Source: Leucocoprinus leucothites
Taxonomy: Eukaryota; Basidiomycota; Agaricomycetes; Agaricales; Agaricaceae
NCBI GenBank assembly: GCA_013368445.1
Contig: JAACJO010000024.1
Location: 372,001 to 436,000 of the forward strand
Direction: 5' to 3'
DNA length: 64,000 nucleotides
Shown: positions 1 through 45,959 of the stretch, in pieces
Numbering within the stretch: the stretch's first letter is position 1
Layout of the letters: each line of letters opens with the position of its first letter
Position numbers and translations under genes: made by a program
Notes under the pieces: generated by a model
What the model saw: only the letters and a program-made list of their open reading frames with translations
Database searches by the model: none
Told to the model about the DNA's origin: nothing

Positions 1-1105
1 CTTGGAACAGCAATGTACTGGACAAGGAGGTAAGCCTGGCTGGGCGTGGTTGAGGACGAGGAATGCGCACAGTAAGTATGCATGATAGCATGATGATACT
101 ACTCGAATTTGAGTGGTGCCTCTAAAAGACGAGTAAATCAACTCTTACCTCATAAGGCCGCTAGTAGCTATTGTGTAGCGAATGATTTGGGTCACGAGTG
201 TACTAGTTGCCCTATGTTCCATAAGCGTCGAGGATTTGGGCCGAACATACAGGTTCAAGTCATACCTCATGTCTCGAATTCCCTCGCTTCGTTTAAGCAC
301 ATAGTAGCATAGGAGAGCAGCGATCAGAATGTCGGCTTCAAGGATAAAAACCATTTACTCCTCAGTGCTCGTTGGGGTGAGGCAATGATTTTACTTACTG
401 GCAGTTCCGACAGCCAGCATCTCGAGAACACCGCCGGGGAGTCGAATTCTCAGCTGAAAAAACAATGCACATAGAAAAACAGAGACGAAAGTGCCTAGGG
501 TGCATACAAAAACCGGTCCCACTATCCAGACGCTTCCTAGGCTGAGAACCCATATCCTGAAAAGTTTGTCAGTATTCTGCGAACACGAGGAGGGGCGTGA
601 GAGACACTTGCCGATGTAGCAAGAAGAGTTGTGAAAGCAGAATTGATAAGGCAACGAAGAATAGGTGGAGGACGAGTGGAAAAATCATCCGCTTAAGGAC
701 ATGAACATTACCCCAGTTTGTGACCAGATAGTAATGGGCGGTGTATGAAATAAGGATGAGCTGGATCAAGCTGAGTATCCTGCTCGAGTTCTTGTTAGTT
801 TCTTGTAGCTAGTAACGCTCGAATGGTGCGGGCTGACCAAAGGGCGGCGACCAGTATTTTGATCCTTGGGGAGTCATCAGGGAAATCCTGGTAATATTGA
901 TACGCTTGTACGGTAAGAACACCCTGAAAGCTTTTGGAATTTCTGAATGAAAATCTCTCAGGAGGAAGATTTCACTGACAATGTCGCGAATAACACTGAA
1001 GGAAGTATGAGCAAACACAACGGGGCAGATATTGTATCCCGTACCTCCTATAAGCAATATTCCATACATGAGTTCGAGGTCCAACCCTGTTGGTTTGAAA
1101 TTCAT
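1..1105 (-). CDS. DUF6534 family multi-pass membrane protein, tandem copy 1 (3' end cut by window)
   Basis: A fungal DUF6534 protein: a seven-helix-like integral membrane protein of unknown function. The start is the ATG at 1103-1105, opening MNFKPTGLDL and ending exon 1 at a GTACGG donor after LLIGG. Further exons encode the 20-nt microexon (VLFATLS), the YYYLVTNWGN helix, the RIWVLS...GPVFVC helix pair, ADILIAALLCYYVLKRSEG and TLVTQIIRYTIATSG, all family signatures. The last exon visible, at the window edge, reads YIAVP, so roughly the final 90 residues are missing. I saw no frameshift or stop in the exons present. It is the leftmost of four copies and diverges from GCN2 pseudogene 1. Family assignment is from recalled family motifs, not a search. 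Confidence 0.8.
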
Positions 1106-1156
1106 AGCTGGCGGAAAGGAAGTGGTTGAGGATCCGCGCCTCCGACATGGGGGTAC

Positions 1157-1163
1157 TATATAT
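1157..1163 (-). promoter_or_regulatory. TATA box of DUF6534 copy 1
   Basis: A TATATAT-type element lies 52 nt upstream of the ATG. Equivalent elements stand 52, 55 and 52 nt upstream of copies 2, 3 and 4 (8328-8334, 14782-14787, 21157-21163). Retention at this spacing in all four copies suggests a real core promoter. Confidence 0.6.
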
Positions 1164-3655: not shown

Positions 3656-4742
3656 TATTGGCATGGACACGAGCGTTAGAACTCGGTCAGGAATATATAT
3701 AGGTAAGGGTTGTATATAGAAAGGAGGAAATCTGAATTGTGGGTGACTGTTGGCGACCACGATGACGCTAGCTTGGTTTAAGTATGGCGCATCGGGACTG
3801 GGGGGAATCTTCATTTGTTTACCAAGCCATTGTTAGAGAGGGCAAGGTGGATGTAGGCCTGGTATTGGAGTAATGAGAAAAGAGGACGATCATCGTTATG
3901 GACCACTGGATAGCGAGGGAGGCGCTGGAAGGAGACAACAGTCGGTAACATCGAGTATTCGATGGAATATGTGAAATTTGTATGGGTCATTCATTACTCA
4001 TTCATGAAAGTTCTGCCGCTGCCAATGGAATATTGGTGAATCGAGCGTCGGGGGCAATCGAAGATTGTGGATATCGAATGGAGGATGATTACAATATAAA
4101 CACCGCATAGATCGTGTTCAGGGTAAAGATACTATGAGCAAAGATAGATATCAAAGGGCTAGCAGATGTTCGCGAACTTGAGATGAGCCGTAGTACGACC
4201 ATCGGGGACCGAAATGAATTGAGAGAGTCTTCGGACATAATCGTCAAGTTTGAGTCACTAGGTCTTGCTGGATAAAGAGTCGACCCATGATCAAGGTGTA
4301 CATCTGGTGCATGGAGCAAGATGAATACCAGTCAATAATACGTTGTGGAACCCCGTCGATTGTGGATGAGTCGGTAAGAGATGATGCCAATCGAATGTTC
4401 TAGTAAAAGAGTGGAAGAGATCTACAGGGTTGGTGATATTGGAGAAGGCTAATGTCAGGGCTTACATCACGCCCTGAAGCACCTCATCCACAAACACCTT
4501 TTCCCTGCCACCCCTACACACAACACACTCATGGAAACTTGGGTTGCCGAGTGCCTTTGCGGCTCTCCCCTTCTTGAGTTTGGTTATTGACATATTCCTG
4601 AGCGTACTTTTTGTTCTTGCACACTTTTCTTCATTTGTCATTTGACCTACCGCGAGGTTGGAGACGTTTCACGTACAAAGGACAAGCCGGCGAAGGAAAG
4701 GAGACGACTTTATCACACGATTTTCGAGAATACTTGATCAGA

Positions 4743-6145
4743 ATGGATTCGACGGAAGAGCTGCAACAATTGGAGATCACGGCACTGCAGAGGATGTATG
4801 CGGAGGATTTTGCCGAGCGTCCGCTTCCCAAGGCATGGAAGGTGTGTGTTTGTCGTTTTCCATTTCTCTGTCGGGGAAATCTGAACTCGTGTGCTAGAGT
4901 TCATCGTATGCGTGCTTCACCCTGATCCTGAGCACGCGTCCAAAGTCGGATTCTCCTTGAATGTCCGGTGCGCATGTCGCGTTATCTGTTGCGATCTACA
5001 TTATGATTGATGAGGCAATGCTTCCAGATTCCAAAGACATACCCTCCGCTCACATGTCCAGCATTCACAAACCCGCGAAGAGTTTGTGGATGCTCTATGG
5101 CAGATCGTGACTTTTGCCCAAAGGTTTAAACGAGGGGGTTGTCTAGGCGAGATCCTATCACGAGATTTATCATAGCTGGAATGAGATTGAGCGTAGGGGT
5201 GGTGGTGGAGGAGAAAGGAGGGGGTCAAGTAAGAGAGCAGCTGGAGGTGATAGAAATGCTGCTGCTCTGACGACGCTGCATCCTACGGCCACCCGACTAC
5301 TCTCCCGAGTAGCGGTGGTGCGAATGGAAATGGGGTGGGATGGAGGATGGAGATGCCGTGTCCGCTGAATACGATGCCGCATGTGATGAAGACGCTGTAT
5401 ATTCAGACGGAGTTTGTCGAGAGGCAGTCGTTATGGTTGGTTTGTTACTAGCGCTCTCTCATGAAATTGTGCCAGAGGATTGACGAGGGGATTACGGAGG
5501 ATGAGGCTTGGAGGTTGTTTGGCCAGACTGTGGATGTATTGGTGCATATGTCTACGTTGGGGATATTGCACCGGGATATCAAATTGACGAATATATTTAT
5601 TGGTGGGTCTCGCCCTGCTTTGCTATGACGCGTTGCTGAGCTTGATGCTTTCGCAGATGCGAATGGGGGTTGTGGAGTGAGGGATTTCGGATTGGCTACA
5701 TCGAGTCTGGCTGTTGTGGACCTTTTGGATGTGACCAGACATCCGATCTATCCCGAGGCCGGTATGACTCTCGATGTGTTGATTCAAACTTGGACCCCGT
5801 GGTGGTTGATTAATAGTCAATGTAGAGGTCGGTACAAGGTTGTATTTTGCTCCCCGAGGTACAATCGAGGAAGAAGGGACCAAGAAATCACTCGAAAGTT
5901 GACATGTATTCTCTTGGTGTGCGCGCTCTTTCTTCTTCTGTCTGGCGGGTCTCTTAACGCGCTGGGTCGTAGATTGTCTTTTTTGAGATGAATTACACGC
6001 TCTCCACCGGTTCGGAACGTATACCGTCATTGAGAATTTACGGACGCCAGGGATATTTTCTCCTGCTACTTGGAACCCTCATCGTTCTTGGCATCGACGG
6101 AGTACGTTTCTCAAGTTTTGACCACTACGATCATACCATACGCTT
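4743..6145 (+). pseudogene. GCN2 pseudogene 1 (RWD start plus broken kinase C-lobe)
   Basis: Exon 1 is intact (MDSTEELQQLEITALQ) and matches the functional gene at 23899. Intron 1 lost its 3' splice site by a deletion between two near-identical CTYGTGTGC words. The RWD exons follow to the reading IVTFAQ near 5120. The sequence then jumps to the parent's kinase-insert region (parent about 27.4 kb), removing about 2.9 kb with the pseudokinase and N-lobe. Exons with HRDIKLTNIF, DFGLAT and the following C-lobe survive in order with their introns, so it arose by DNA duplication rather than retroposition. Homology stops near the NYM...STGSER exon. No kinase can be made. Confidence 0.88.
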
Positions 6146-6683: not shown

Positions 6684-8276
6684 CTACGGTAGCGAGTGGC
6701 GAAAAGGTCGTGGTGGGTAAGTATCTGACGGAACTTGCACGACAGGCTGAGAACGTGAACTTGTAAGGGCAAATAAAATGTTGACTACGCTTGTAGACGT
6801 ACCTTAATTTCTCTGGCAGCCGACCGCGACGAAATTGTGGTGAAGTGAGATGAATGTTCATATGTGCTTGCGCCAAGTCTTGGCAGCCTTCGGATGATGC
6901 TTGAGCTTCCACCCAATTCTGTTGTCTTCGCAAAGGATGGCTCCATCTTGTCGAGTGTTTCCCGAAGCTTACTTCGTCCATTCAAGCTGTGGATTCATGA
7001 GTCGCGAGAGAGGAGATGGTGGTCCCTGGGAAGATGCTCACTTCACGAGGACGGCATTCGCGTATGTTCGTCCAGAGGAAAAGTGTAATGCCTGTGTTAA
7101 AGAGTTGGATTTTCGTAGTCGCTACGTAAGATAAGAGCACCCTCACTATGCAAATAAATGGGCTTGGGAAGGCGATGTACTAGACGTGAAGGAGGTAAGC
7201 CTGGCTAGGTGTGGTTGAGGACGAGGAATGCGCACAGTAAGTATGCATGATAGCATGATGATACTACTCGACTTTGAGTGGTATATCTGGGAGACGCTTA
7301 ACTAAATCCTTACCTCGTAAGGCCGCTAGTAGCTATTGTGTAGCGAATGATTTGGGTCACGAGTGTATTAGTTACCCTACATTCCGTAAGCGTCGAGGCA
7401 TTGGGATGAAATACGGTGGTTCAAGTCATACCTCATATCTCGAGTTCCTTCGCTTCGTTTAAGCACATAGTAGCACAGGAGAGCAGCGATCATGATGTCG
7501 GCTTCAGGGATAGAAACCGTCAATCCTCAAATCTCTTTCTAGGTGAGACAATGATTTTACTTACTGACAGTTCCAACTATCAGCATCGAAAGCATACCGC
7601 CGGGGAGATGAATTCCTAGTTGAAAAAACAATCCACCTAGAACAACAGAGACGAAAGTGCCCAGGCTGCATACAAAAACCGGCCCCACTATCCAGACACT
7701 TCTGTTGCTGAGAACCCATATCCTGAGAAGCCTGTCAACATTCTGTGAATATGAGGAGGAAAATGTGAGATACTTGCCGGTGTATCAAAAACAGTTGTGA
7801 AAGCAGAATTGATAGGGCGATGAAGAATAGGTGGAGGGAGTATGGTAAAATCATCTGCTCAAGGACACGAACATTACCCCAGTTCGCGACCAGATAGTAA
7901 TAGATGATGTGTGAAATAAGGACGAGCTGGATCAAACCAAGTATCCTGCTCGAAATCTTATTAGTTTTTTGCAGTTGGTTTTAACGCTCGAATATGCAGG
8001 CTGACCAAAGGGCGGCGGCCAGTATTTTGATCCTTGGGGGGTCGTCAGGGAAATCTAGATAATATTGATACACTTGGACGGTAAGAACGCCCTGAAAGCT
8101 TTTGGGTTTTCATTCAGGAAATCTCTCGGGAGGAAAATTTCACTGACAATGTCGCGAACAACACTGAAAGAACTATGAGGGAATACAACGAGGGAGTAGA
8201 GATTATGTCCCGTACCTCCTACAAGCAGTACTCCATATGTTGGTGCAAGGTCCAACTCTGTTGGTCTGAAATTCAT
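6684..8276 (-). CDS. DUF6534 family multi-pass membrane protein, tandem copy 2 (complete)
   Basis: The best resolved copy. Twelve exons sum to 984 nt (327 residues). Exons include 8276-8216, a 20-nt microexon at 8163-8144, 8091-8006, 7945-7778, 7722-7565 and 7501-7432; six more run to the TAG at 6684. The spliced protein reads LLVGGVLFATLSGVLTVQ, then LWxLG...YYYLVANWGN, HRIWVLS, ADIMIAALLCYYVLKRSEG, IIRYTIATSG, YIAFPSPFICIALHF, TYANAVLVNLNGRSKLR and a short tail ending FRHSLP. This is the DUF6534 helix order and its C-terminal LYxNSLLxxLNxR motif. The intron after LLHR has a GC donor (GCAAGT). Function in the family is unknown. It converges on GCN2 pseudogene 1 and diverges from pseudogene 2. 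Confidence 0.85.
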
Positions 8277-8327
8277 AGCTGGCGGAAAGGAAGTGGTTGA
8301 GGATCTGAGCCTCCGACATGGGGGTGC

Positions 8328-8334
8328 TATATAT
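8328..8334 (-). promoter_or_regulatory. TATA box of DUF6534 copy 2
   Basis: TATATAT 52 nt upstream of the ATG, at the same distance as in copies 1 and 4. Confidence 0.6.
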
Positions 8335-9811: not shown

Positions 9812-10812
9812 GATACGTGCGTTAGAACTTGATCAGGAATATATATAGGTAAGGGTTGTATAGAAGGAGGAGGCCGCGCCCGAGGAAATCTGAATTGTGG
9901 GCAAAGTGGATGTAGGCTTGGTATTGGAGTGGTGAGAACAGAGACGATTATTATTGTATAGACCACTGGATGGCGAGGAAGGCGCTGGAAGGAGACAACA
10001 GTCGGTGGCACCGAGTATTCGATGGAATATGTGAAATATGTACGGGACATTCATTACTCATCGATGAAAGTTCTGCCGCTGTCAATGGAAGACGGAATCC
10101 GGTGAATCGAGCGTCGGGGGTAATCGAAGATTGTGGATATCCAATAAAAGATGGCTACAATAGACGCCGTATCTATCATGTTCAGGGTAGAAATACGATG
10201 AGCAGAGATAAGTATCAAAGGGCTAGCGATGTTTTCAGACTTGAGATGAGCCGTAAATGCGACCGTCGAGGACTGAAATGAAATGAAAGAGTCTTCGGAC
10301 CTAATCGTCGAGTTCGAATCGCTAGGTCTTGCCAGATAAAGAGTCGACTCATGATCAAGAAGGTGTATATCTAGCAGGGAGCCGGATGAGTACTAGTCAA
10401 TAATATGTACTTCGTCGATGAGTCAGTAAGAGATGGTGCCAGTTGAATGTTCTAGGAGGGAAAGACGACTACAGGGTCGGAGATATTACTTAGAGAAGGC
10501 TAAAGTTTAGGGTTATATCAGCACCCCATTAACGTAACACACCCTGGAAGCACAAACGCTCTTTCCCTCCCACCCCCACGAACCACTCAAAACCGCATCA
10601 TGGAGACTTGAGCTACCGAGTGCCTTTGTGGCTCTCCCCTTCTTGAGTTTCGTTATCGACATATTCCTTGACGTACCCTTTTTTTCTTTTACACATTTTT
10701 CTTCGTTTGTCGTTCGACCTACTGCGAGGTTTGAGATGTTTTATGTCCAAAAGCAGGCCGGCTAAGGGAAGGAGGCAACCTTTCACACGATGTACGAGAA
10801 TACTTGATCGGA

Positions 10813-12395
10813 ATGGATTCGACAGAAGAGTTGCAGCAGTTGAAGATTACAGCGCTGCAGAGCATATATGCGGAGGATCTTGTCGAATGTCTGCCTCCCA
10901 AGGCGTGAAAGGTGTAGGTTTGTCGTTCTCTGTGTGTTTGTCGAGGAAATCTGAATTTGCGTGTTGCTTGATCACAGGGAGCGGCTCGTGCACTCTAATT
11001 CATCATATGTGTAGATCACCCCGATCCCCAACATGCGTTCAAGTCCGAGTTTTCCTTGAAGGTTCGGTGCGCACATCACTTTACCTGCTGCTTACCATGA
11101 CTGAAGAGCCGGTGTTTCTATGTTTCCAGGGACCTATCCTGCCCTCCCATGTCCGACGTTCACAAACCCACAAAAGAGTTTGTGCGTGTTCTATCCTAGA
11201 TCGTGACTTTTGCCCAAAGGTTCAAACGAGGGGTTGTTTAAGCGAGATCCCGTCACGGGAGTTATCACCGTTGGGTTGAGATTGAATGTAGTAGCGGTGG
11301 TGGGGTAGGAGAAAGGAGGGGGTCAAGGAAGAGAGCGGCTGGGGCGATAGGAATGCTGCTGCTCTGACAATGGTGCATCCTATGGCTATTTCGACTATTT
11401 CTCCTAGTAGTGTTGGAGCGAATGGGTATGGGAGGGAGGACAGAGATGCCAAATGTGGTGAGGACTCTGCATGTTCAGATGGAGTTTGTTGACATAGAGA
11501 GAGGTACGTGTGCTTTGCGTTTTCTTAGCGCTTGCTGATGGAATTGTACCAGAGGATTGATAGGGTATTACGGAGAATGAAGCCAGGTGGTTGTTCGGTC
11601 AGATGGTAGATGCGCTGGTCTACGCTTGGGAAATTGCGTCGTGATACCAAGTTGACGAATACTTTTATTGGTGGGTCTTGCTGTGCTTTGTCGTCCCTCC
11701 GGCCCTAATGGCTTTATAAACGTGAACGGGGACCGTAGAATGGGAGATTTTGCATTGTCACGTCGAGTCTGGCGACTGTTGACCCTTCGGATGTGACTAA
11801 ACACCTCAATCCCGAGGTTAATATGGCTCTCGGTATGTGGTTTGTTAATTAGGGACCCCGTGTCGCTGAATAGTGATCAATGCAGAGGTTGGCACGAGTT
11901 GTATACTACTTTGGAGGTACAATCTAGGAAGAAGGGGCCGAGAAATCACTCGAAAACTGACATGTATTCTCTTGGTGTACGTGCTCTTTGTTCTTCTGTC
12001 CGACAAGAGTCTTTCAACGAGTTGGGTCGTAGATTGTCTTCTTTGCGATGAATTACATGTTCTCCACTGGCTCGAAACGTATCGCCGTCATTCGGGATTC
12101 GCGGAAGCCAGGGACGTCCCTCCCAGCTACTTGAGACCCTCATCTTTCTTGGCATCGATGGAGTGCGTTTCTCAAGTTTTGACCACTGCGGTTATACAAA
12201 ACTCATTTTCCTTTTCCAGTGGTAGTTATTTCAGCACAAATAACAGGCCGACTGCGCTCAAACTTTTCGAGGGTCCGCCTATGTCGCCCAAGTTGGAGGA
12301 TGAGAGTTTCAATGAGCTTTGAACCTCATGGGTGTGCCTTGAGCCAGTTGCGGGACGTCCAACGATGACAAAGGCGGCGGTGTTCGATATAATCA
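10813..12395 (+). pseudogene. GCN2 pseudogene 2
   Basis: Exon 1 starts MDSTEELQQLKITALQSIY and is stopped by TGA at 10906-10908, where the parent has TGG (KAW). The RWD exons then join the kinase insert at the same junction as pseudogene 1 (AACGAGGGGTTGTTTA near 11226), including the same second deletion, so both descend from one damaged ancestor. Kinase C-lobe exons follow with many small lesions. The exon containing NNRPTA is present. The 29.0-29.1-kb parental exon (PVAG.P.T.KAAVFDII) follows directly, skipping the preceding exon. Homology to the HisRS-like region ends at about 12395. Confidence 0.88.
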
Positions 12396-13153: not shown

Positions 13154-14727
13154 CTACGGTAACGAGTGGCGAAAACGTCGTGGTGGGTAAGTACCTGACG
13201 GAACCTGCACAAAAGGCTGAAAATGTTAATTGGTAATGGCAAGTAAACCGTTGACTACGCTTGTAGACGCACCTTAATTTCTCTGGCAGCCGACCGCGAC
13301 GAATTCGTGGTAAAGTGAGATGAATGCTCATGTGTGTTCGTGCCAAGTCTCGGAAAACCTCGGATGGCGCTTGAGTTTCCACCCAGCTCTATTGTTTTCA
13401 CAAAGGATGGCTCCATATTATCGAGTGTTTCTCGAAGCTTACTTCGTCTATTCAAGCTGTGAATCCATGAGTCGGGAGAGAGATGATGGTCCCTGGGAAT
13501 GTGCTCACTTGACGAGGACGGCATTCGCATACGTTCGTCCAGAAGAAAAATGTAATGCCTGTGTTGAAAAGTTGGACTTTCGTAGTCACTATACAAGATA
13601 AGAGGACCCTCACTGTGCAAATAAATGGACCTGGGAGGGCGATGTACTAGACGTGAAGGAGGTAAGCCTGGGTAGGCGCGGTTGAGGACGAAGAATGCGC
13701 ACAGTAAGTATGCATGATAGCATGATGATACTACTCGAATTTGAGTGGTATATCTGAAAGACGCTTAAATATATTCTTACCTCGTAAGGCCGCTAGTAGC
13801 TATTGTGTAGCGAATGATTTGGGTCACGAGTGTATTAGTTACCCTACGTTCCGTAAGCGTCGAGGTATTGGGCTGAAAATACGGTGGTTCAAGTCATACC
13901 TCATATCTCGAGTTCCTTCGCTTCGTTTAAGCACATAGTAGCACAGGAGAGCAGCGATCATGATGTCGGCTTCAGGGATAGAAGTCATTACTCCTCAATA
14001 CTCATCGTGGTGAGGCAACGATTTTACTTACTGGCAGTTCCAACAGCTAGCATCGAGAGCATACCGCCAGGGAGTGGAATTCCCAGTTGAAAAAACAATC
14101 CACCCAGAAAAACAGAGACGAAAGTGCCTAGGCTGCATACAAAAACTGGTCCCACTATCCAGACGCTCCCTTGGCTCAGAACCCATATCCTGAGAAGTTT
14201 GTCAGTATTCTGTGAACACGAGTGTGTGGGACACTTGCCGGTGTAACAAGAAGAGTTGTGAGAGTAGAATTGATAAGGCGACGAAGAATAGGTGGAGGGC
14301 GAATGGTAATATCATGTGCGTAAGGATCTGAACATTACCCCAGTTCGTGACCAGATAGTAATAGGCGGTGTATGAAATAAGGATGAGTTGGATTAAGCCG
14401 AGAGTCCTGTTCAAATTCTTGTGAGTTTCTTGCAGTACTCCAATGGTGCAGGCTGACCAAAGGGCGACGACCAATATTTTGATCTTTCGTGGATCGCCAG
14501 GATAATCCAGGTAATATTGATAGGCTTGTACGGTAAGAACACCCTGAAAACTTTGGGTTTTTTGAATGAAAATCTCTCAGAAGGACAATTTCACTGACAA
14601 TGTCGCGAATAACACTGGAACATGTATGAGGGAATACAACGAGGGAGCAGAGACTGTATCCCGTACCTCCTATTAATAATACTCCATATGTTGGTGTAAG
14701 GTCTAAATTTGTTGGGTTGGGATGCAT
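13154..14727 (-). CDS. DUF6534 family multi-pass membrane protein, tandem copy 3
   Basis: The start MHPNPTNLDLTPTYGVLLIG is followed by the GTACGG donor, the 20-nt microexon encoding VLFATLS, LWTLGLIQLILISYTAYYY, the GC-donor intron after LLHR and RIWVLS. Later exons mirror copy 2, including SLNRRSKLRETLDNMEPSF and a tail ending FRHSLP with TAG at 13154-13156. The same exon junctions and phases hold, and no exon-internal stop was seen. Membrane protein of unknown function. The flanking GCN2 pseudogenes are clearly dead while this gene stays open, which suggests that DUF6534, not GCN2, was under selection after duplication. Confidence 0.82.
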
Positions 14728-14781: not shown

Positions 14782-14787
14782 TATATA
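14782..14787 (-). promoter_or_regulatory. TATA box of DUF6534 copy 3
   Basis: TATATA 55 nt upstream of the ATG, equivalent to the elements in the other copies. Confidence 0.55.
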
Positions 14788-15192
14788 CTACCCTCCCCCT
14801 CAATTTGACTTGAAATGTACCTGAGAGTAAGGTGCAAATTTAGATCAGCTTCCGTCACTGTACGTACGACACCCTATCCCTGCCCAGGATCAAATCAATG
14901 CAAATCGAGAATATATTATGTATGGACAGTAGATCTGGCGTGTGGTACGCAGCTGGATGTGACTATGCGAAGATTTATACTTGACAACTGTAACCTAGCC
15001 ACTTTGCTACGGAAGATGGGAGACTGAGAGAAAGAGAGAAGACCGCTTTGTGCGCCTGTGGCTCGATACTTTCACCCAGGGCTGTCAACTCGTGGAAATA
15101 TCTCAAGCTGGCTACCATTTGAATTTTGTACTTATGTCAATGCGTCCCTTTGTTTGATCCCTTGTTGGCTAGCACGTATATTAAACAGAATA

Positions 15193-15556
15193 CTGTAAGA
15201 TCCTTAATTCGAAAAGCAGGGGTTGCGTCTGTGACAGAAAAGCGTGTTTTGTCCCGAAAAGCAGCGGGGTCAGGGAACGTGACCAACCAAAAGTACTGAT
15301 AGAATCGTGATTAGGATTGAGATTTGATTATCTAGAGATTGTGCCAAGGAATAGGCAGAGTCAGCTATGAATGACGTGGAAAAGGCAAACAAGAATAGAG
15401 AGAGTGCTGGAACCAGGAGGCAATGTTAGAGGGTAAGGCAGAAATGGTTTTTTTCTGAATAAAACCCCGTGACATTTGGGTCGTTACTCCGAGATGACCG
15501 AACGCCAAAAGGGCTTTTCGTGCCGTGAGTTGCTTTTCGAATTAAGGATCCTACAG
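15193..15556. mobile_element. 364-bp TA-target MITE
   Basis: Terminal inverted repeats of about 26 bp, starting CTGTARGATCCTTAATTCG, with one mismatch. TA at 15191-15192 and 15557-15558 is the target duplication. No open frame of note. Units 1 and 2 have an uninterrupted related site (ACAGATAATATGTAT near 1566 in unit 1). Probably a non-autonomous Tc1/mariner-type derivative; the CTGTA terminus resembles that of the element at 22749-23089. Confidence 0.78.
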
Positions 15557-16181: not shown

Positions 16182-17534
16182 CTGAAAGTATCTTGACCGT
16201 TTCAGATATGTATTAATGAACGGGTATTGAGCCAGTGTCTGAAATACGGTTGCCAAGGACACGAGCATTGGGATCGGTTTAACATCAGTTGGGAGCATCG
16301 AAAGGTGCGAGGTTGCACCGTAGGGCCGGATGATAGAGAAGTTTAGACGTGGAAATGTAGGTGATTGTTGGTAGCTGTGGTGATGCTTGCTTGTTACGTG
16401 GGGCCTTGAAAGGAGAATGGTCATGTGTTTAGAAAGTTATTAGTGGGCTCAGTCAGAATGGCCGATCACCGGTCAAGAGTTTGGTCAGAAAATCGATCTT
16501 GGGTTCAACTCGGTGAGAAGACCGTAGATTGACTTCCAGGACTTGCCCGACTAACTTAGCATAAACCCAGTTTATGATTTGCTTGTGTTACAATAGAACT
16601 CATAGGTCGAGAATGTGCGGGGTGGTTAGAGTAGAGCGGATATATGTCTGATATGGGAGCATTGAAAACAGATGACGGTCATTAATATTGTGCTAGACAA
16701 CTCTAGAGGGTGAGCAAGGTACTGGAAGGAGACAAGAGGCAGTGGCGCCAAACAGTTGACGGAATGTACGAGCTTGTATGAGGCATTATTCATTCATAAG
16801 TGATGCCATTGTCAATGGGAGATGATATCCTGTGGTATAGAGCTTCAAGGGCGATCGAAGATTTACTGTTGGTGGATATCAATAAAAGACGAAGACAATA
16901 AATGCTGTGTATGTCGTATTCAGGGTGGAGATGCTATGAGGACAATCAACGGATTACTACGTATGTAACGGATGTTCGCGGACATGAGATGAGCCGTAAG
17001 TGCGACCGTCGTGGACACAAATGAATTGAGAGAGTCTTCAGACATAAACCATCCAGCCGAGTCACTACTAGGTTTTGTCAGATAAAGAGTCAACTCATGA
17101 TCAAGTGCATGGAGCCAGATAAATATCAGTCGATAATACGTTCTTTGCAGTCGATCAGTCAGTAAAAGATGATGCCAGTCGAATATTCTAGTAAATGGGC
17201 GAAAGACGGTCATAGGGGAGGGGAAGACTACGGTTAGGGCTCACATCAGTGCCCCATTAATGCAACACCCATGAAGCACCCCACACACAACACACTCGAA
17301 ACCACGTCATGTAGATCTGAGTTCCCGCGTGCCTTTACGGCTCTCCCCTTCTTGAGTTTAGTTATTGACATATTCCTTGACGTACTCTTTTTGCTTTTAC
17401 ACGCTTTTCTTCCTTTGTCGTTCAACCTACCACGAGGTTCGAGACGTTCTGTGTGCAAAGAGCAGGGCGATGAAGGAAAAGAAGGAACTCTATCAGAAGA
17501 TTCGAAACATACACTTGATTTCTGAGAACGGACT

Positions 17535-19105
17535 TGACGGAAGAGTTGCAGCAGTTGGAGATTACGGCGCTGCAAAGTATATATGCGGGAGATTTTGTCG
17601 AGTGCCCGCATCATAAGGCACGGAAGGTGTGTGTTCTTTGTTAACTGTGTCTCTGTCGGGAAAATCTGAACTTGTGTGCGGCTTGATCACAGGGAGCGGC
17701 TCGTGTGCCAGAGTTCATCATACGCATACATCACCCTGATCCTGAACACGCGCCTGAGGTTGGATTCTCCTTGAACGTCCGGTGCGCATTGTATGTTGCT
17801 ATCTGCATCGTGATTAATGAGTCGATGCTTCTAGATTTCCAAAGACGTACCCGACCCTCGTGTGTCCGACGTTCACCATCCAGACACCCAAGAAAAGCAT
17901 CACACCAGAGCAATCGCAAGGGATCATGCAAGAGGCACAGAAAGGTCGTGGTTCGGAGATGGTATTCCAGGTACGTTCTATACTGTTAAATACGCGTTGA
18001 TGATAGCCCGTCGTCGTCTATCGCTGGTGGATTTCCTCATGCAGATCATGACTTTTACACAAAGGTTCCCACGAGGGCCCCAACTGCGTTTCAGGCTCCG
18101 GGTCAGGCGAGAGTGAATTGGGAAGGGGAGGTTGTTCAGGAGATATTCCATCACGGGCATTAGTATTACCGCTGGAATGAGACCGAGTCATCGTCATGAT
18201 GCTGCTGCGGTGGTGGAGAGCTGAGGGGACCGAGGAAGTGGGATGAAGAAATTACGGTACTCTCTTGGTGTACATGGTTATCCAATTCTTTCTTCTCGAA
18301 TGTTCTGTCATCCGACAAAAGTTCTCCAACAGGTTGTAGATCGTCTTTTGTGAGATGAATTATATGCTCCTCCCTGGTTTGGAATGGATTGCTGTCCTTG
18401 CGGACCATATCACGGATGTTTGTCGACCTAGATAAGCTCTGCCGGCTACTTATGAGAGTTCACTAATTGAGCGTTTGCGCCTACGTAACCCAATTGCGGG
18501 TCACCTAAAGTCGACGAAGGTGCTAGTTTTTAAAATAATTATGCAGGACATTACATTGAGGCCGACAGCAGCTGGTACGGTAATCGTAGCTGTCCTCAAT
18601 AATATTCTCAATTTCCCAGCCTGTCGCAGAGTTACAAGATCCATTGTCCCACTCCAAGAGTACGCTTCCTGTATTCGCTTTACTTGTCTCCAGTGTTGCT
18701 GATTTTGAGATACAGGTGGCAGTTATCGAGCTCGCGATGAATAGGATCCCGGGTGCCCATAGAAATGCGGCTGTAGAAATCAGTAACCAGGCCAAGAGTT
18801 CGCCGTCGCAGAAGTAAGCATTGGTTTCGAGGAATGGCCTTTTGCGGAGTACGAAGGATAAACCTGAGCTTTTGTCCGGAAATTTGCAGCTCTCTTACAG
18901 CGCTGAAATTAGTCTTTGTAGATGAGCATGTTGATAACGTTGTATCCCTGCTGGAAAAGATTTTGTCCTCTCTCGTAACGCCCATCCAGCCTTTGATTGC
19001 TGAAATCCAGAACACGCTTCGATTTTCTGCAACTGCTAGTGTTCTGAAACCTTACATTCATCCGCTCATGCTGGGAAGTCATCAGTCGTTGTTCAATCTT
19101 TGAAG
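17535..19105 (+). pseudogene. GCN2 pseudogene 3 (RWD plus HisRS-like remnant)
   Basis: The RWD exon reads ELQQLEITALQSIYAGDF, but the initiator ATG is gone (parent GTGATGGATTC replaced by GGACTT). The second exon reads AARVPEFIIRIHHPDPEHAP. After GACTTTTACACAAAGG it joins the parent's kinase insert, keeping about 50 bases that pseudogenes 1 and 2 lack, so it preserves the first version of the shared deletion. A private second deletion (about 18200-18240) removes the kinase C-lobe. Fragments matching parent exons near 28.2 kb and the HisRS-like exons (29.07-29.7 kb) follow to about 19105. Introns are retained. Confidence 0.86.
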
Positions 19106-19189
19106 CTGTGAAGAAGAACAGAAGACTGGATGTTTCTGCCGCATCTGAACAGTATCTCGGCAGTTTCGAAAAGAGTGACCCCTGATGTT

Positions 19190-19508: not shown

Positions 19509-21105
19509 CTACGGTAGCGAGTGGCGGAAGCTTCGTGGTGGGTAAGCGCTTGACGGGACCCGCACGAAAGGCTGAAACTGTGAATTAGCATGAGCAAATA
19601 AACCCTTGACTAGGTCAATGAACACGCCTTTGTTTCTCCGGTAAGCGATCGTGCCGGATTGGTACTTAAATGGGATGAATGATCATGTGTGCTTCTACCG
19701 AGTCTCGGCAGCCTTCGAATGACGCTCGAGCTTCCACCCAGCTCTATTGTCTTTGCAAAGGTTGGCTCCATATTTTCGAGTGTTTCCCGAAGCTTACTTC
19801 GTGCATTTAGGCTATGAATTAACGAGTCGGGAGAGAGATGTTAGTCCCTAGAGAGAGGATGCTCACTTCACGAGAACGGCATTTGCGTATGTTCGTCCGG
19901 AGGAGAAATGCAATGCCTGTGTTGAAGAGTTGGGCTTTCGTAGTCACTTTGTAAGATAAAGAATGTCCTCACAATGGAAATCAATGAACCTGGAAAAGCA
20001 ATGAACTAGACGTCATCAATGAGCTAAGCCTGGGTAGGCGTGGTTGAGGACCAGGGATGCGCACAGTGAATAAACATGATAGCATGATGATACTACTCGA
20101 CTTTGAGTGGTGAGTCCGAAAGGCCAGTGAGTACACTCTTACCTCGTAAGTCCGCTAGTAGCTATTGTGTAGCGAATGACTTGGGTGACGAGTGTACTAG
20201 TTACTCTATACTTGGTAAGCGTCCTGGTATTAGACTAATAATACATTAATACAAACCATACCTCATTTCTCGAGTTCCCTCGCTTCGTTTAAGCACATAG
20301 TAACATAGGAGAGCAGCGATCAAGATGTCAGCTTTAGGTATAGAAGCCATTACTGAAGGCTCGTCGAGGTGAGAGAACGATTTCACTCACTGACAGTTCC
20401 AACAATCAGCATCTCGATCATGCCCCCGGGAAGTTGAATTTCCAATAAAGAAAAAAATGCACCTAGAAAAGCTAAAACGAATGTGCCCAGGATGCATACG
20501 AAAACTGGACCCGCAATCCAGACACTTCCTTGGCTGAGAATCCATATCCTGAGAAGCTTGTCAATATTATGTAAGGACGAGGAGGAGTATGTGTGACACT
20601 TGCCGATGTAACAAGAAAAGTTGTGAAAGTAGAATTGAGAAGGCAACGAAGAGCGGGTGAAGAAATAATGGAACGATCCTCTGTGGAAGGACATGAACAT
20701 TTCCCCAGTTCATGACCAGATAATAATAGACAGTGTATGAAATAAGAACGAGCTGGATGAAGCCAAGTATCCTGTTCAAATCGATGTTAGTTCCTTGTAG
20801 CTGGTTGTAGTACTTCGATGGTGCAGGCTGACCAAAGGGCGGCGACCAATATTTTGATCCTTCGTGGATCATCAGGAAAATCGAGGTAATATTGATACGT
20901 TTGTACGGTAAGGACGCCCTGGAAGCTGTGGATTTTCTGAATGAAAAAAAATCTGTCGGAAATTTTTCTCACTGACAACGTCGCGAATAACACTGACAGA
21001 AGCGTGAGGGAATACAACGAGGGAGAAGCGATTGTATTCCGTACCTCCTATTAACAACATTCCATGTGTTGGTGCGAGGTCCAACGCTGTTGGATTGGGC
21101 TTCAT
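19509..21105 (-). CDS. DUF6534 family multi-pass membrane protein, tandem copy 4
   Basis: The start MKPNPTALDLAPTHGMLLIG is followed by the conserved 20-nt microexon, GVLTVQTYQYYLDFPDDP, LWILGFIQLVLISYTVYYY, the GC-donor intron and RIWILSQGSVWIAGPV. Then come ADILIAALLCYYVLKRSEG, TLVTQVIRYTIATSG, FIAFPGSLISI, TYANAVLV and LNARSKLRETLENMEPTF. The donor of the last intron is GCGTGT where other copies have GTACGT. If it is not spliced, translation ends at 19610; if it is, the tail ends FRHSLP at 19509 like its sisters. This copy is the divergent neighbour of the functional GCN2 and probably represents the ancestral unit. Confidence 0.8.
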
Positions 21106-21156
21106 AGCTGGCGGAAAGGAAGTACTTGAGGAACGTTACCTCCGACATGGCGGCAC

Positions 21157-21163
21157 TATATAG
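21157..21163 (-). promoter_or_regulatory. TATA box of DUF6534 copy 4
   Basis: TATATAG 52 nt upstream of the ATG, in register with copies 1 and 2. Confidence 0.55.
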
Positions 21164-23898: not shown

Positions 23899-26800
23899 AT
23901 GGATTCGACGGAAGAGTTGCAGCAGTTAGAGATAACAGCGCTGCAGAGCATATATGCGGAAGATTTTGTCGAGTGTCCGCCTCCCAAGGCATGGAAGGTG
24001 TGTTCTTCGTTCTCTGTTTTTCCGCCGGGAACATCTGAACTTGTGTGCGACCTGATTACAGGGGGCAGCTCGTGTGCCAGAGTTCATCATACGCGTGCAT
24101 CACCCTGATCCTGAACATGCGTCCAAGGTCGGATTCTCCTTGAACGTCCGGTGCGCACATTCCATTATCTGTTGCTATCTGCATCGTGATTGACTAGCCG
24201 ATGCTTCTAGATTTCCAAAGACATACCCGACCCTCGCATGTCCGACGTTCACTATCCAGAAGCCTACGAAAAGCATCACACCAGAGCAAGTCAATAAACT
24301 TACGCAAGCGATCACGCGAGAGGCGCAGAAATGTCGTGGTTCGGAGATGGTATTCCAGGTATGTTCTGTGGTATTGATTGTGTATAGCTATTGATAGCCC
24401 GACGTCGCCGATCGTTTGTGGATGTTCTATTGCAGATCGTGACATTTGCACAAGAATGGATTGTAGCGAATGTTATACCGCCGGTAGAGGTTACCGGGTC
24501 TTTGGCTCTGCAAATGAACCAACGTGCGATGGATGAGGAAAGGGCGAGTCTCTGTCACGGTCACCTTTACTTCTTGATACTTACTCTGTTCTCCTCATGT
24601 TTTCCACCCACCCACCCTCAACCCAAACCAGGCACGAAGAGAAAAAGAAGCCGAAGCTCAGCGTCTCCTTCTCCTCCAACAAGCCAAAGAAGAAGAGGAA
24701 CTCCAAACCCAGATTCGCGCCGAACAGTCTAAACAACAGCAGCAACAGCAACAGAATCAACGAGTGCATAGCAGTGCGATGATGATGCTCAGAACGACGA
24801 GTACTGGAAGTACCAATACTTCGGAAGCGTTTACACCTGCTAGCGCGGGAGGATTTGCGATACCGGTTATGGCTGCAGGTGATACACCCGTTGAGAGATT
24901 TGGAAAAGAGTTTTGTGTCGATGGTGTAAGGTTTTCAAGTGTCAAGTTATTTCATCCTCGCCAAGGTACATTGCTCCGTTGTACCTGTGGCGTGCTTATT
25001 CTTATCCCTCTATTCACTTTTAAAAACATATTATTTATAGAGGCCCTCGGAATGGTATATATGGCCGATCCCATCTGCGACGATATCAACACGAGTCTAC
25101 CACTCGAACTCTATGCCATCACTTTTGATTCCCCATACTACACAACCACTCAAGGCCGAAAGAAACTCACGCACCTACAAGAAGAAATCCAGCGCCTAAC
25201 GAATATTCGACATCCGAATCTACTTAGCGTATTTGCTGTAAAACTTGTTCATCCGCACACGTCGTCGTTTTCTGGGGCGAGGATATCTGCTGCTGTCGGG
25301 GGCTCGCCGTCCTCGTCTTTGGTAGGGGGTAGTAGTCTTGGTGTTGGACTGGGGTTGGGCCTAGGGCTGGGGCAGGGAAGACCAAGCTCACCAGTGGTGT
25401 ATACTGGGAATGCGCCGCAGTTGATGATTTTGACGGAGAGAATGCCGGGGTTGACATTATGGGACGTGTTGGAAGATTGTGATACTGTACGGGAGGAGCG
25501 AGCTTCGGTGAGTCCTAGCATCTTCGTTCTACTGTGATACTTATATGAATTGGGTTGTAGGGGTATCTGAGTCAGATTCTGGGCGCATTGAATGCTGTTC
25601 ATTTGAGGGAAATCGTCCACCGAGGTACGCTCTTCCAGTTTCTCGGGTTGCATCGCCTGGCGATTGTTGATGTACGTTATTGTGCTCAGGTATCACAGCA
25701 AAGTGTATTGGCCTCACTCCACCTTCCCCTCCTCCCACTGGTGCTTCCACGTCAACGTCAGGGTCAACCGCATCTTCAGCAAAAGTTATCAAACTAGGAA
25801 AAGTATCCTACCACACTCAGCTTCTCGATCTACACCGCTCGAATCCGTTTAATGGTTCATCGAGTGCGGTCCTGCCTATGGGCGATGAGATCGATATTCC
25901 CGAAGCCTGGTACGCAAACACCATTTTTACGCTTACGGTGACATGGGTCATTAATTTCGAAATTAACCAGGCTCTCAAACGACGCGAAGAATGAGTCGTC
26001 GTTGCTTTATACGAGGAGGAGAGATATCCATTCGGTTGGGATTGTGTTTTTGCAGGTGCTGCTTGGGCTGGATGTAATGCAGAGGTTTGATGATGCTCGA
26101 GAGGCGTTACAGAGTTGTATGTAGAGCCCTCCCATGCCTTCACAACGTAACTGACATACCCCTTTGTATACAGCCAACATCTCACCGGGTCTAGCACACA
26201 TTGCACTCAACATGCTCTCACCGCCCAAGAAGAACCATATCACGTGTATAACACTCCTCGCCGAGCTTGCTGAGAATTCCGTTCACAATACTGGTACTAC
26301 TGCCACTAGTAGTAGTAGCACTACCGTGACTCGGCGAGGCCATAGGTGGAGTGGGTCAAAGGCGAGGCATAGTGATGCCGCTGGTGGGTATAACACGTTG
26401 GCGAGCTCGACATCGACTATTATGGGCGGTGGCGGTGGGGATGGGTTTGGATTTGGTATGACTGTGGGTGTGGGTGCGGGAATGGGAGGAGGAGGGGGCG
26501 GCGATCTCGTTGGCCCAGTGTCGAGAAGTCCCACGTGGGTTGACCCGAAGACGCCTGTCCCGACACCTAGGATGTTTGCACAACAAGGATATGGATATGG
26601 GCATACGCATGCACATGGCCATTTTATCGGTAGCCCGGAGATGGAGTATTTTAGGATGCCGCCGAAGACGAGGCAGGCTAGTCGGTGGAAGGAGGATTGG
26701 GAAGAGTTGGAGTTGCTCGTGAGCTTCCTCCCTTTTTTATCCTTGAAAATTCCCTCAACGTGATTTTTTAACGAAACAGGGCAAAGGCGCGTTCGGGTCG

Positions 26801-29800
26801 GTGGTCAAAGCTCGAAACAAGATTGACAATCGGATTTATGCGGTCAAGAAGATTCGACTCAAGACACAACAATCTGATACTAAGATTTTTAGAGAAGTCA
26901 ATGCTCTCTCTAGATTGTCACATCGCTTCATCGTTCGATACTTTACAACCTGGGTCGAGACGAGCGAGAACCAGAATTCCTCTAGTGTCGCTCCGAGTGC
27001 GAGCAGTGCGGATGATAGTAATGGCATCATGACGTTTTCTATACCGTCTTCGCCTGTGGCTTCTCGGTCTAGGTCAAGGTCACGTTCGAGTGATGATGGG
27101 GATGATGAAAAGGAGGACGATGATAGTGACAGGTTGGACAATTCGGCTTCGACGGTGTCCGAGCGCCATTTGCCGACGAATGGGGGTGGGTTTAGTATTG
27201 AAGACTTTTCGGATTTTGATACGACCACCACTGAGATATCGGGTGCCTCGAGAGGTTCGTTCCCGAGTATTCACTTTGATCGCTCGGATTCGCCCGGTGG
27301 GTCAACAGAGGAAGAAGAGGAGGATACGGAGGAAGAAGGCGGTTCTAATGAGGGCTCCAATGGCAGTTCGGGCTCTGGCTCAGGTGAAAGTGGCTTTGGG
27401 GGGTTGTTTAGGAGGGATCCCGTCACGGGCGTTATCATGGCTGGAGTGGGCGGAGGAGGAGGAGGAGAAAGGAAGGGATCGAGGAAGAGAGCTGGGACGG
27501 TTGTGGGTGATAGGAATGCTGCTGCTTTGATAATGACGACTACTACGGCGCATCCTATGGCTATTACAGCTACTTCCCCGACTGGTATTGGTGCGAATGG
27601 GAATGGGGTGGGAGGGAGGACGGAGATGCCGTATCCGTTAAATACGATGCCGAATGTGACGAGGACGCTGTATATTCAGATGGAGTTTGTGGAGAGGCAG
27701 ACGTTGAGAGAGGTATCTGTGCTTTGGTTGGTTTATTATTAGCGCTCGCTGATGCAATTGTGCCAGAGGATTGATGAGGGGATTACGGAGGATGAGGCTT
27801 GGAGGTTGTTTGGCCAGATTGTGGATGCGTTGGTGCATATGTCTACGTTGGGGATATTGCATCGGGATATTAAGTTGACGAATATCTTTATTGGTGGGTC
27901 TCATTCGCTGCGTTATGTCGCCTTACTGACCTTTACAATTTCGCAGATGCCAATGGTGATTGTAAAGTGGGAGATTTTGGGCTGGCTACGTCGAGTCTGG
28001 CTGCTGTAGACCCTTCGGATGTGACTAGACATCCCATTTATCCTGAGGCTGATATGACTCTTGGTACGTGTCCCGTTAGACTTGGACCTCATGCCCGTTG
28101 ATTAATAGCCAACCCAGAGGTCGGCACGAGGTTATATATTGCTCCGGAGGTTCAGTCGAGGAAGAAGGGGCCGAGAAACCACTCGAAAGCTGATATGTAC
28201 TCTCTCGGTGTACGTGTTCTTGCTTCTTGAGTTTTGTTTTGTCTGATAAAAGCTTTGGGCTGTAGATTGTCTTCTTTGAGATGAATTACATGTTCTCCAC
28301 AGGCTCGGAACGTATCGCCGTCATTGAAGATCTACGGAAGCCGGGCATATTCTTCCCTGCTACTTGGGACCCCCATCGTTCTCGGCAGCGACAGAGTGCG
28401 TTTCTCAGATTATGACCACTGCGATTATACAAGGCTCATTTTGTTTTTTCAACGATAGTCATTACCCAGCTGCTTCAGCATGATCCGAATAACAGGCCGA
28501 CTGCGCTTGAGCTTTCTGAAAGCCCGCTTATGCCACCAAAGTTGGAAGACGAGAGTTTCAGGGGAGCTTTGAACCTCATGGGTATGTCTCCAGTTGGGTA
28601 CATTGGATATCTGGCTGATACGATCGCGTTATGTAGCCAAGCAAGATTCACCGTGGCACCAAGCTGTCATCTCGTCGCTCTTCACTCAGACGCCCAAACC
28701 TTCCCGTTCCTTCCTTTATGATTCCCAGGCTGACCCACCTGAACAACATGCTGCGCTCAATTCGACCGTCCATGAACACTTGGCAGCGATCTTCCGGCTC
28801 CATGGAGCGGTAGATATGGAGCCGCCCTTGTTGATGCCTGTGGTGGATTTGCAAGAGGATCAGAAGAACCATGCGACTTTTATTGATCGATGTGGTGATC
28901 TCGTGAGCTTGCCAAATAATCTGTTGGTGCCGTTTGCTAGGATGGCTGCGAGGACCGGGATCAAGAGGATCAAGAGGTTTCATATTACGAATGCTTATCG
29001 GCCGAGGTAAGCGCTGGCGGCTACTTGATGAGAGACCATTGATTGAACACTCCGGCCTGTTTAGTCCAGTTGCGGGTCACCCGAAGACAACGAAGGCGGC
29101 GGTGTTTGATATAATTACGCCAGACATTGCATTGGGACCGACAGCAGCTGGCGCGGAGATTGTAGCTGTGCTCAATGACATTCTTAATTCCTTCCCCAAT
29201 CTGTCGCAGAGTTACGAGATTCATGTGTCTCATTCCAAGAGTGGGTTTCCTGTATTCGCTTCATTCGTTTATGGTGTTTCTGATTTCGGCGTATACTTGG
29301 CAGTTATCGAGCTTGCGATGAATAGGATTCCGGATGTCCATCGAAGTGCGGTTGTGGAGATTATCAATCAAACCAAGAGTTCGCCATCGCAGAAGCGAGC
29401 TTTGCTTTTGAGGAAGGGCCTTTTGCGGAGTACGACGGATGAGCTCGAGATTCTGTCCGAAATTGGTGAGTGTCGATGTGATTGTAATTCTATTTACAGC
29501 GTTGAAATCGGTTTTTGTAGATGAGGATATCGAGAACGTTGTATTCAGACTGGAAAAGATCTCGTCCTCTCTCGTAACGCCTATACGGCCTTTGATCGCT
29601 GAAATCCAGAACACGCTTCGATTTGCTGCATCTGCCGGTGCTCTGAGACCTGTGTACATTCACCCGCTTATGTTGGGGAGCCATCAGTCGTTGTTCAAGG
29701 ATGGAGTGATCTTCGAAGTTGTGAAGAAGAATAAGAGGATGGACGTTCTTGCTGCAGGCGGACGGTATGTCTGCGGTTTTGACGCTTTCGGCACTTTTCT

Positions 29801-30907
29801 CATCTATTTCTAGATATGATCACCTCATCGGTCGCTTTTCTCCCACCAAGCAGAATCTCGATGCCGTCTGCGCGTCTGGGCTACAAATTGCAGTTGAGAA
29901 GATTACGGCAGCACTCGCTACTTTCCAGAGTACCTCTGTCAAGACCCTTGTCAAGGAAGAACGCTCATTTGGCTTCTGGAGTCCTCGACGATGTGATGTT
30001 TACGTAGTATCGCATCATCCAGGACACCTGCAAGATCGACTGGAAGTTGTGGCGTATTTGTGGCAACATAACATCAGCGCGGACCTCATGTACGAGTTTG
30101 GGATAAGTAATGCGGACACCCATGAAAGTCATATTGATTTGTGCTGTCGGGAGGGAATTCTGTGAGTAATGTTGCTTGCCGTCATAATGTTGCACTGTTA
30201 ATGTATTGTGGCTGCAGATTTGCAGTGTATCCTAGACCCAGAACAGGGAGACGAGACCAAGCCGCGTTCAAGGTTAAGAGCATCCTGAAAGGCACCGAGT
30301 ACGAACGTGCGTTATACAATCCTTTAAAGGGCTCATTTGTTAATCTCACACGTGTAGTGTCACGCCAGGAACTTGTCGGGTGGCTCCAACAGCAGATCGC
30401 CGAACAGAAACGTGCAGATCTAACTACGTCTGCAGCGCCTGTTGTGGCTGACAACATTTCTGGTGGAGCTGTACCGTCAAGAGACGCTTCAATACCGCCC
30501 GACGTACAACTTATCCTACCGATTGATACCAAGAAGCAGAGGAAACAAGTCAAGCAGTTGTTCCTTGATCGAGGTGCTTTGACCTCTCCCACCAAGTTAT
30601 TTGTATTGGCTAATGGTAATACCTAGCTTTCGAGACTGCAATGGATGTACGATCCTCTGTACAGAACGGTATGCCAACGATCGCTGTGGATGTTTCTCCT
30701 GATGTGTTCGACTCGATGGTCCGTAGCCCCAAATGGGTCAGCGAGGAAGATGCTTGGAAACCTTTGGCTGCTGCTTTCCCACCTCAGTCGTCGGCGTATG
30801 CTCATCAAGTCCGTGAAGCAGTTGCGAAACGAAAAGCTGAAGGGCACCCTTATGTCCTTTTGTTCGCCGTTCGCGATGAACGTGTCCAGCTTCTCGACCT
30901 CTCCTGA
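23899..30907 (+). CDS. GCN2: GCN2-type eIF2-alpha kinase (functional copy, about 24 exons)
   Basis: Senses uncharged tRNA and phosphorylates eIF2-alpha, lowering general translation and inducing amino-acid synthesis. All GCN2 domains occur in order over about 1,870 residues: RWD (MDSTEELQQLEITALQ..., GCN1 contact), a charged/Gln-rich linker, a pseudokinase with HRG in place of HRD, and a true kinase. The kinase has the glycine loop LGKGAFGSVVKAR, lysine YAVKKIRL, a long acidic Ser-rich insert, HRDIKLTNIF, DFGLAT and the T-loop GTRLYIAPEV. A HisRS-like domain (YDHLIGRFSP, FAVYPRPRTG) and a C-terminal dimer/ribosome region ending LLDLS follow. Intron 4 appears to use a GC donor (GCGAGT). Acidic and Gly-rich inserts make it longer than yeast Gcn2. 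Start is the ATG at 23899; stop TGA at 30905-30907. Confidence 0.93.
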
Positions 30908-45957: not shown

Positions 45958-45959
45958 TA

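What the first reader, a model, noticed from the sequence alone, without database searches (positions are those of the whole stretch)
1..30907. Four-unit tandem array in which DUF6534 genes stay open while three GCN2 copies die
An anchor sequence (ACAGTAAGTATGCATGATAG and close variants) recurs at 69, 7234, 13701 and 20063. Each unit pairs a minus-strand DUF6534 gene with a divergent plus-strand GCN2 start. Only the rightmost GCN2 is complete; the others carry deletions, stops or a lost ATG. All DUF6534 copies keep splice sites, frame and TATA box. This implies amplification selected for the membrane protein, with the essential kinase gene carried along.
Basis: partly seen in the sequence, partly recalled or inferred. 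Interest (0 to 1): 0.75.

Follow-up and report, generated by a model that had tools for sequence, protein, structure and literature searches.

The report
Ten receptor-like genes, dead kinase passengers
In the mushroom Leucocoprinus leucothites a gene for a seven-helix membrane protein was copied into a row of ten intact genes, while a fragment of the neighbouring nutrient-sensing kinase gene GCN2, probably already broken before it was copied, was multiplied with it as debris.

Summary
The array continues about 36 kb left of the window: ten DUF6534 genes, all on the minus strand, one intact GCN2 at the right edge, five GCN2 fragments and two short relics. All ten DUF6534 genes keep frame, GT/GC-AG ends at 110 of 110 introns and a TATATA box 51-60 bp upstream. 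They are under purifying selection (dN/dS 0.23-0.45; no internal stop where about 25 are expected by chance), and one (6684-8276) equals a protein from a public contig too short to be anything but spliced cDNA. Deletions and tree fit best a duplicated unit of dead GCN2 plus the DUF6534 to its right, not the head-to-head pair, though fine branching conflicts. Intact GCN2 still adjoins the methyltransferase that it adjoins in relatives. The layout works like yeast CUP1/RSC30 arrays. DUF6534 models are seven-helix bundles whose best match is the class D receptor Ste2, without sequence support. Selection for the amplification itself is not shown.

The parts
1..1105 (-). DUF6534 copy w0, 328 aa; ATG at 1105; the gene runs out of the window to coordinate -476; TATATA 1157-1162
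   Evidence: 12-exon model, GT/GC-AG throughout
6684..8276 (-). DUF6534 copy w6, 328 aa; ATG 8276; TATATA 8328-8333
   Evidence: model identical to public protein P0001 from a 1384-bp contig, shorter than the 1593-bp gene
13154..14727 (-). DUF6534 copy w13, 328 aa; ATG 14727; TATATA 14782-14787
19509..21105 (-). DUF6534 copy w20, 328 aa; ATG 21105; TATATA 21157-21162; last intron has an unusual GC donor (GCGTGT)
4472..6136 (+). GCN2 fragment u4.5 (exons 1-2, parts of 3, 4 and 11, exons 12-15); 5 frameshifting indels, 0 stops in 327 codons compared
10548..12393 (+). GCN2 fragment u10.5; 15 frameshifting indels, 5 stops in 360 codons compared
17279..19169 (+). GCN2 fragment u17.3; shares the big deletion, lacks the other three shared ones; keeps pieces of exons 15 and 17-19; ATG gone; 7 frameshifting indels, 1 stop in 386 codons compared
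23899..30907 (+). intact GCN2, 22 exons, 1913 aa (RWD, kinase, anticodon-binding domain)
   Evidence: 79% identical to L. birnbaumii NP233_g6910 over 100% of the query; constrained substitution pattern
31118..32335 (-). lysine methyltransferase (Methyltransf_16), conserved right neighbour of GCN2
   Evidence: Pfam; NP233_g6911 beside GCN2 NP233_g6910 in L. birnbaumii

Best explanation
A lineage-specific tandem array of a seven-helix, GPCR-like gene (DUF6534) beside the ancestral GCN2 locus. Likely course: DUF6534 sat upstream of GCN2; a tandem duplication made a second GCN2; that copy lost about 2.9 kb (exons 4-10 and parts of its neighbours) and was dead; later unequal exchanges multiplied segments of [dead GCN2 + DUF6534]. 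Selection removed damage from the DUF6534 genes and let the GCN2 debris decay. Shown: copy number, shared deletions, purifying selection on DUF6534, lesions and near-neutral change in the fragments, cDNA-type sequence of one copy. Inferred: order of events, unequal exchange as the mechanism, and that the copies act as membrane receptors that have come to differ in ligand.
For: Ten copies on one strand. 3270 codons without frameshift or internal stop, apart from small differences at the C-terminal end; random placement of the 898 terminal-branch substitutions gives 25 stops on average and at least 13 in 500 runs, last 20 codons left out. dN/dS 0.23-0.45 in 45 of 45 pairs; IQ-TREE codon model 0.438. 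Shared deletions: about 24454-27340 in 5 of 5 fragments; about 24253-24259, 24274-24413 and 27341-27398 in 4 of 5; losses of 11 and 5 nt in exon 16 in 3 of the 3 fragments that keep that exon (coordinates read by eye). Fragments: 49 frameshifting indels and 12 stops in 1784 codons. Private substitutions in the kinase part of four fragments .080/.079/.092 by codon position, noncoding .088; intact GCN2 .035/.028/.130, noncoding .182. The ten copies separate from 12 relatives with ultrafast bootstrap 100. GCN2-methyltransferase adjacency in relatives.
Against: Fine branching differs between the DUF6534 and fragment trees, so exchange or conversion between units has mixed the record and could itself have spread a deletion. 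Change in the fragments is not perfectly flat: pooled pairwise differences .177/.162/.240 (noncoding .237) in the kinase part and .191/.119/.322 (noncoding .214) in exons 1-3; by likelihood position 2 (range .259-.402) lies just below position 3 (.403-.622) in the kinase part, and internal branches read .042/.045/.126, noncoding .167. A strictly dead ancestor would give none of this. Only 3 of 10 DUF6534 copies matched spliced-type public proteins, one of them firmly cDNA. No expression level or protein data.
Confidence: 0.75

Rival explanations
1. Deletions were spread by gene conversion: several GCN2 copies existed intact, one suffered the deletion, and conversion or exchange carried it to the rest.
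For: Discordant fine trees; fragment u4.5 groups with intact GCN2 in the kinase part, bootstrap 100; partly constrained internal branches and pairwise differences.
Against: One event followed by duplication needs fewer steps; the nested pattern (one deletion in five, three more in four) follows the tree split of w20 from the other four right-hand copies.
Confidence: 0.17
2. One reading: intact DUF6534-GCN2 pairs were amplified and each GCN2 copy died separately afterwards, without conversion.
For: Each fragment also has private lesions.
Against: The same internal deletion in 5 of 5 fragments and three more shared by 4 of 5.
Confidence: 0.04
3. The truncated GCN2 gene was for a time a useful gene of its own, for example an RWD-domain decoy for GCN1 (that RWD binds GCN1 is recalled).
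For: In exons 1-3 of four fragments private changes hit second positions less than third: 15 of 251 against 29 of 152; branch sums .243 against .919; pairwise .119 against .322.
Against: Only about 78 sites per codon position; third positions exceed the noncoding rate, which selection does not explain; all five fragments now carry disabling lesions, four of them within exons 1-3, and u-10 lacks exon 1.
Confidence: 0.07
4. Assembly artefact (uncollapsed haplotypes or false tandem).
For: The assembly seems to hold at least one duplicated stretch elsewhere (C8 and C77).
Against: Copies differ by 11-24% in exons, far more than alleles; genome searches with a DUF6534 copy and with a 3' part of GCN2 found no near-identical second locus (such searches give lower bounds).
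Confidence: 0.02

Closest known systems
CUP1 tandem arrays of Saccharomyces cerevisiae (PMC4232551, passages read)
   Same: A gene is tandemly repeated; in the S288c-type repeat each unit carries a piece of a neighbouring gene (YHR054C, identical to the terminal 1 kb of RSC30) and a complete RSC30 stands at one end of the array.
   Different: There the truncation is the repeat's own breakpoint within RSC30; here the fragment has a large internal deletion and further decay, the units are old (11-24% exon divergence), and the repeated gene encodes a membrane protein.
DUF6534 (PF20152) family of Agaricomycetes
   Same: Over the Pfam cut-off for 3 of 3 copies tested; further members and clusters in the same genome.
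   Different: Here the repeats carry GCN2 debris, which lets the order of duplications be partly read. Whether other clusters carry such debris was not examined.
Class D fungal pheromone receptor Ste2 (PDB 7ad3)
   Different: Other Ste2 entries score only 16.0 and 16.1, tied with rhodopsins and taste receptors. Identity 8-9%. Foldseek alone has no match at E<=0.001 and ranks 7ad3 second and 15th. No sequence match. PMC12842992 (passages) says Ste2-like receptors are found only in Ascomycota.

Membership tests
DUF6534 (PF20152) | Pfam model over its gathering score | tested here: met
   P0001 59.6, P0002 58.0, P0003 64.6 bits against 28.2; they equal copies w6, w-22, w-29. The other seven copies were placed by alignment, not scanned whole.
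GCN2 (eIF2-alpha kinase) | RWD, kinase and anticodon-binding domains in one protein, full length against orthologues: the copy at 23899-30907 | tested here: met
   pieces match RWD (19.8 bits, under the cut-off of 22.8, in a piece holding only exon 1), Pkinase (46) and HGTP_anticodon2 (50.3); 79% identity over 100% to NP233_g6910, whose record has all three
GCN2 (eIF2-alpha kinase) | the same, for the five fragments | tested here: not met
   large internal deletion, frameshifts, stops
CUP1-like array with truncated passenger | repeated gene, partial neighbour in the repeats, complete neighbour at the array end | tested here: met
   (7 of 10 intervals between or beside DUF6534 genes hold GCN2 pieces, one more the intact gene); compared with passages of PMC4232551
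CUP1-like array with truncated passenger | copy number changes fitness under some condition | not testable with these tools
   needs strains and growth tests
GPCR, class D (Ste2-like) | seven-helix fold with Ste2 as best structural match | tested here: met
   7ad3 best in both VIA-align runs, two models from overlapping alignments, pLDDT 72.6 and 76.4; other Ste2 entries tied with non-Ste2 ones
GPCR, class D (Ste2-like) | sequence match to STE2 (PF02116) or to Ste2 chains | tested here: not met
   no PF02116 hit at E<=0.1 for 3 proteins; profile of A1 matches no PDB sequence at E<=10
GPCR, class D (Ste2-like) | couples to a G protein | not testable with these tools
   PMC12842992 reports in-silico G-alpha pairing for predicted new GPCRs, many with DUF6534 (passages read)

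The most novel reading that the evidence does not exclude
DUF6534 is the basidiomycete counterpart of the class D receptor Ste2, hidden by sequence divergence, and this array is a set of ten diverging chemoreceptors whose outer side changes faster than the rest; the GCN2 debris serves as a clock for the order in which receptors were added.
Probability: 0.2. Interest if true: 0.75.

Novelty: new member of a known kind. Interest (0 to 1): 0.42.

Why it matters
Most repeats hold a natural control: two neighbouring genes of similar age, one kept and one left to decay. That makes retention of the DUF6534 copies measurable instead of assumed, and it corrects the order of events. If the Ste2-like fold is right, the largest cluster of unclassified seven-helix fungal proteins (so called in PMC12842992) would gain a structural class and testable receptors.

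Tried and rejected
Independent death of the GCN2 copies: disfavoured by shared deletion junctions. Head-to-head pair as the duplicated unit: disfavoured, since it would pair u-10 with w-14, whose DUF6534 belongs to the left-hand group, while u-10 shares all four deletions with u-3.5, u4.5 and u10.5. Assembly artefact: rejected on divergence.

GCN2 relics beside the two leftmost DUF6534 genes (w-36, w-29): tblastn with three GCN2 proteins gave only matches at E 3.6 and 5.5 there, taken as chance, and blastn matched only sequence upstream of DUF6534/GCN2, not the gene. Residual constraint on fragment exons 1-3: seen in three counts but given little weight, because third positions exceed the noncoding rate. 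Sequence link DUF6534-Ste2: none. Foldseek alone did not single out Ste2. My first gene models put the acceptor of intron 7 three nt too early and that of intron 11 too late in seven copies, and took one GCN2 intron as 30 nt; corrected. The DUF6534 corrections were guided by P0001-P0003, so the identity is by construction at introns 7 and 11 and independent at the other nine.

Paper searches: GCN2 + pseudogene + tandem duplication + basidiomycete, 0 papers; DUF6534, 4 (passages of two read; the other two seen in the listing only); PF20152, 2; Leucoagaricus leucothites + genome, 7, listing plus passages of one; Ste2/DUF terms, 8, passages of one read, in which none of the passages shown names DUF6534.

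Rows dropped: searches used four fragments in each block (u-10 not in the 5' block, u17.3 not in the 3' block, as those parts are missing or short there). The protein tree used 12 of 46 homologues; alignments A1 and A2 used 34 and 37 of 46. The stretch 136-163 was chosen after looking at the alignment. Tag comparison covers eight genomes picked by eye from the two hit lists, of which only the best 120 of 171 and of 452 were shown.

Full report
What is there. The window is G000:C23:372001-436000 of a 47.0-Mb assembly. C23 is 516,313 bp, and proteins D9756_010690 and D9756_010691 of Leucocoprinus leucothites lie on a contig of that length and correspond to two array copies. So the organism is taken to be L. 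leucothites, a litter-decomposing mushroom (so listed in PMC9469724, passages read). Coordinates below are window coordinates; negative ones lie left of the window. Copies are named after their approximate left end in kb (w-36 ... w20 for DUF6534, u-10 ... u17.3 for GCN2 fragments).

Extent. blastn of the window and its left flank shows ten DUF6534 genes on the minus strand, ATGs at -34669, -27904, -20558, -17207, -13282, -5888, 1105, 8276, 14727 and 21105. GCN2 fragments lie at about -10.2, -3.5, 4.5, 10.5 and 17.3 kb, with two relics of exons 13-14 at -19220..-18979 and -15285..-15057, and the intact gene at 23899-30907. Beside the two leftmost copies no GCN2 relic was found.

DUF6534 genes. 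All ten have 12 exons; 110 of 110 introns have GT or GC donors and AG acceptors, and all ten have TATATA 51-60 bp before the ATG. Proteins are 323-331 aa; exon lengths differ only by multiples of three in exons 1-11. Public proteins P0001, P0002 and P0003 are identical to w6, w-22 and w-29 after I set the acceptors of introns 7 and 11 by them; the other nine introns agree independently. P0001 comes from a 1384-bp contig, shorter than the 1593-bp gene, so that contig must be spliced cDNA. For P0002 and P0003 the longest contigs exceed the gene, so splicing is inferred. 'lgn' is taken to mean assemblies of public reads; that is my inference. The other seven copies did not appear as such in that search, which only looks at proteins of similar length.

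Selection. Pairwise dN/dS (Nei-Gojobori, my script) is 0.23-0.45 in 45 of 45 pairs; IQ-TREE's codon model gives 0.438. Over 3270 codons there is no frameshift and no internal stop apart from small differences at the C-terminal end. Scattering the 898 terminal-branch substitutions at random gives 25 stops on average and never under 13 in 500 runs, last 20 codons left out. In the same array the five GCN2 fragments have 49 frameshifting indels and 12 stops in 1784 codons. Private substitutions in the kinase part of four fragments fall evenly on codon positions (.080.079.092; noncoding .088), against .035.028.130 in intact GCN2 (noncoding .182). Two other counts are less clean. Pooled pairwise differences are .177/.162/.240, noncoding .237. 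Likelihood branch sums are .381/.326/.484, noncoding .412; positions 1, 3 and noncoding overlap in bootstrap range, position 2 (.259-.402) lies just under position 3 (.403-.622). So the fragments are near-neutral, with some trace of earlier constraint.

Order of events. 5 of 5 fragments lack the same stretch, about 24454-27340 of the intact gene (exons 4-10 and parts around them). 4 of 5 (u-10, u-3.5, u4.5, u10.5) also share losses of about 24253-24259, 24274-24413 and 27341-27398; the fifth, u17.3, lies next to the intact gene (breakpoints read by eye). The three fragments that keep exon 16 share losses of 11 and 5 nt there. Common junctions suggest descent from one copy that was already broken. 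The DUF6534 tree joins w-7, w0, w6 and w13 with ultrafast bootstrap 100 and sets w20 beside them, also 100. This matches the deletions if each fragment is paired with the DUF6534 to its right: u17.3 with w20, the other four with w-7, w0, w6, w13. Pairing to the left fails because w-14 belongs to the left-hand group. So the unit that was copied was most likely dead GCN2 and DUF6534 facing each other. Against this, the finer branching does not agree between the two trees, u4.5 groups with intact GCN2 in the kinase part, and internal branches of the fragment tree look partly constrained (.042/.045/.126). Exchange or conversion between units is the likely reason, and conversion remains a serious rival.

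Ancestral locus. In L. birnbaumii GCN2 and the methyltransferase are NP233_g6910 and g6911 on a contig of the same length, 30,116 bp. Of seven further genomes whose tags I compared, four have consecutive numbers and three have numbers 3, 7 and 18 apart, each pair on contigs of equal length. In the window the methyltransferase is at 31118-32335. So the intact GCN2 is probably at the old place and the array grew on its upstream side. The ten copies separate from 12 relatives, L. birnbaumii included, with ultrafast bootstrap 100, so the amplification is specific to this lineage or was lost there.

Comparison. CUP1 repeats of S288c carry the terminal 1 kb of RSC30 and have the complete RSC30 at one end (PMC4232551, passages read). 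The L. leucothites array works the same way and is a new member of that kind, older and more decayed, with an internal deletion instead of a simple truncation. No paper with GCN2, pseudogene, tandem duplication and basidiomycete together is in the library searched.

Verdict.

Noticed in passing
window 32849-34204, 35674-36906, 43426-44055, 48299-50116 (-) and L010:4741-6287 (-): A second family of large membrane-like proteins (motif HGFFVQMGGFM or close in most) right of GCN2, with a member between two DUF6534 copies left of the window; no Pfam family at E<=0.01 for 4 of 4 pieces tested.
   Followed up: partly
window 44676-45731 (+), 39839-40669 (+); L018:2571-3395 (+): Tc1/mariner-like transposase genes on both sides of the locus; two of the three were scanned and match Pfam transposase models. 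A 217-bp inverted pair at 44363-44579 and 45743-45959, 99.5% identical, brackets the first, so it may be a young element.
   Followed up: partly
contigs C8 (1982324-2000003) and C77 (9781-27454): Pairs of DUF6534 matches with equal scores and nearly equal spacing on two contigs, likely an uncollapsed haplotype.
   Followed up: no
DUF6534 intron 4 in w-7, w0, w6, w13, w20: All five right-hand copies have a GC donor where the five left-hand copies have GT; the cDNA-type sequence P0001 shows that it is spliced in w6.
   Followed up: yes
window -16792..-16488 and 15185-15492: An inverted pair, 82% identical, outside the tandem register.
   Followed up: no
window -36264..30907: In the searches only two of the ten DUF6534 genes appeared as annotated L. 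leucothites proteins (D9756_010690, D9756_010691), and no L. leucothites GCN2 of comparable length among the 120 of 171 listed hits.
   Followed up: no
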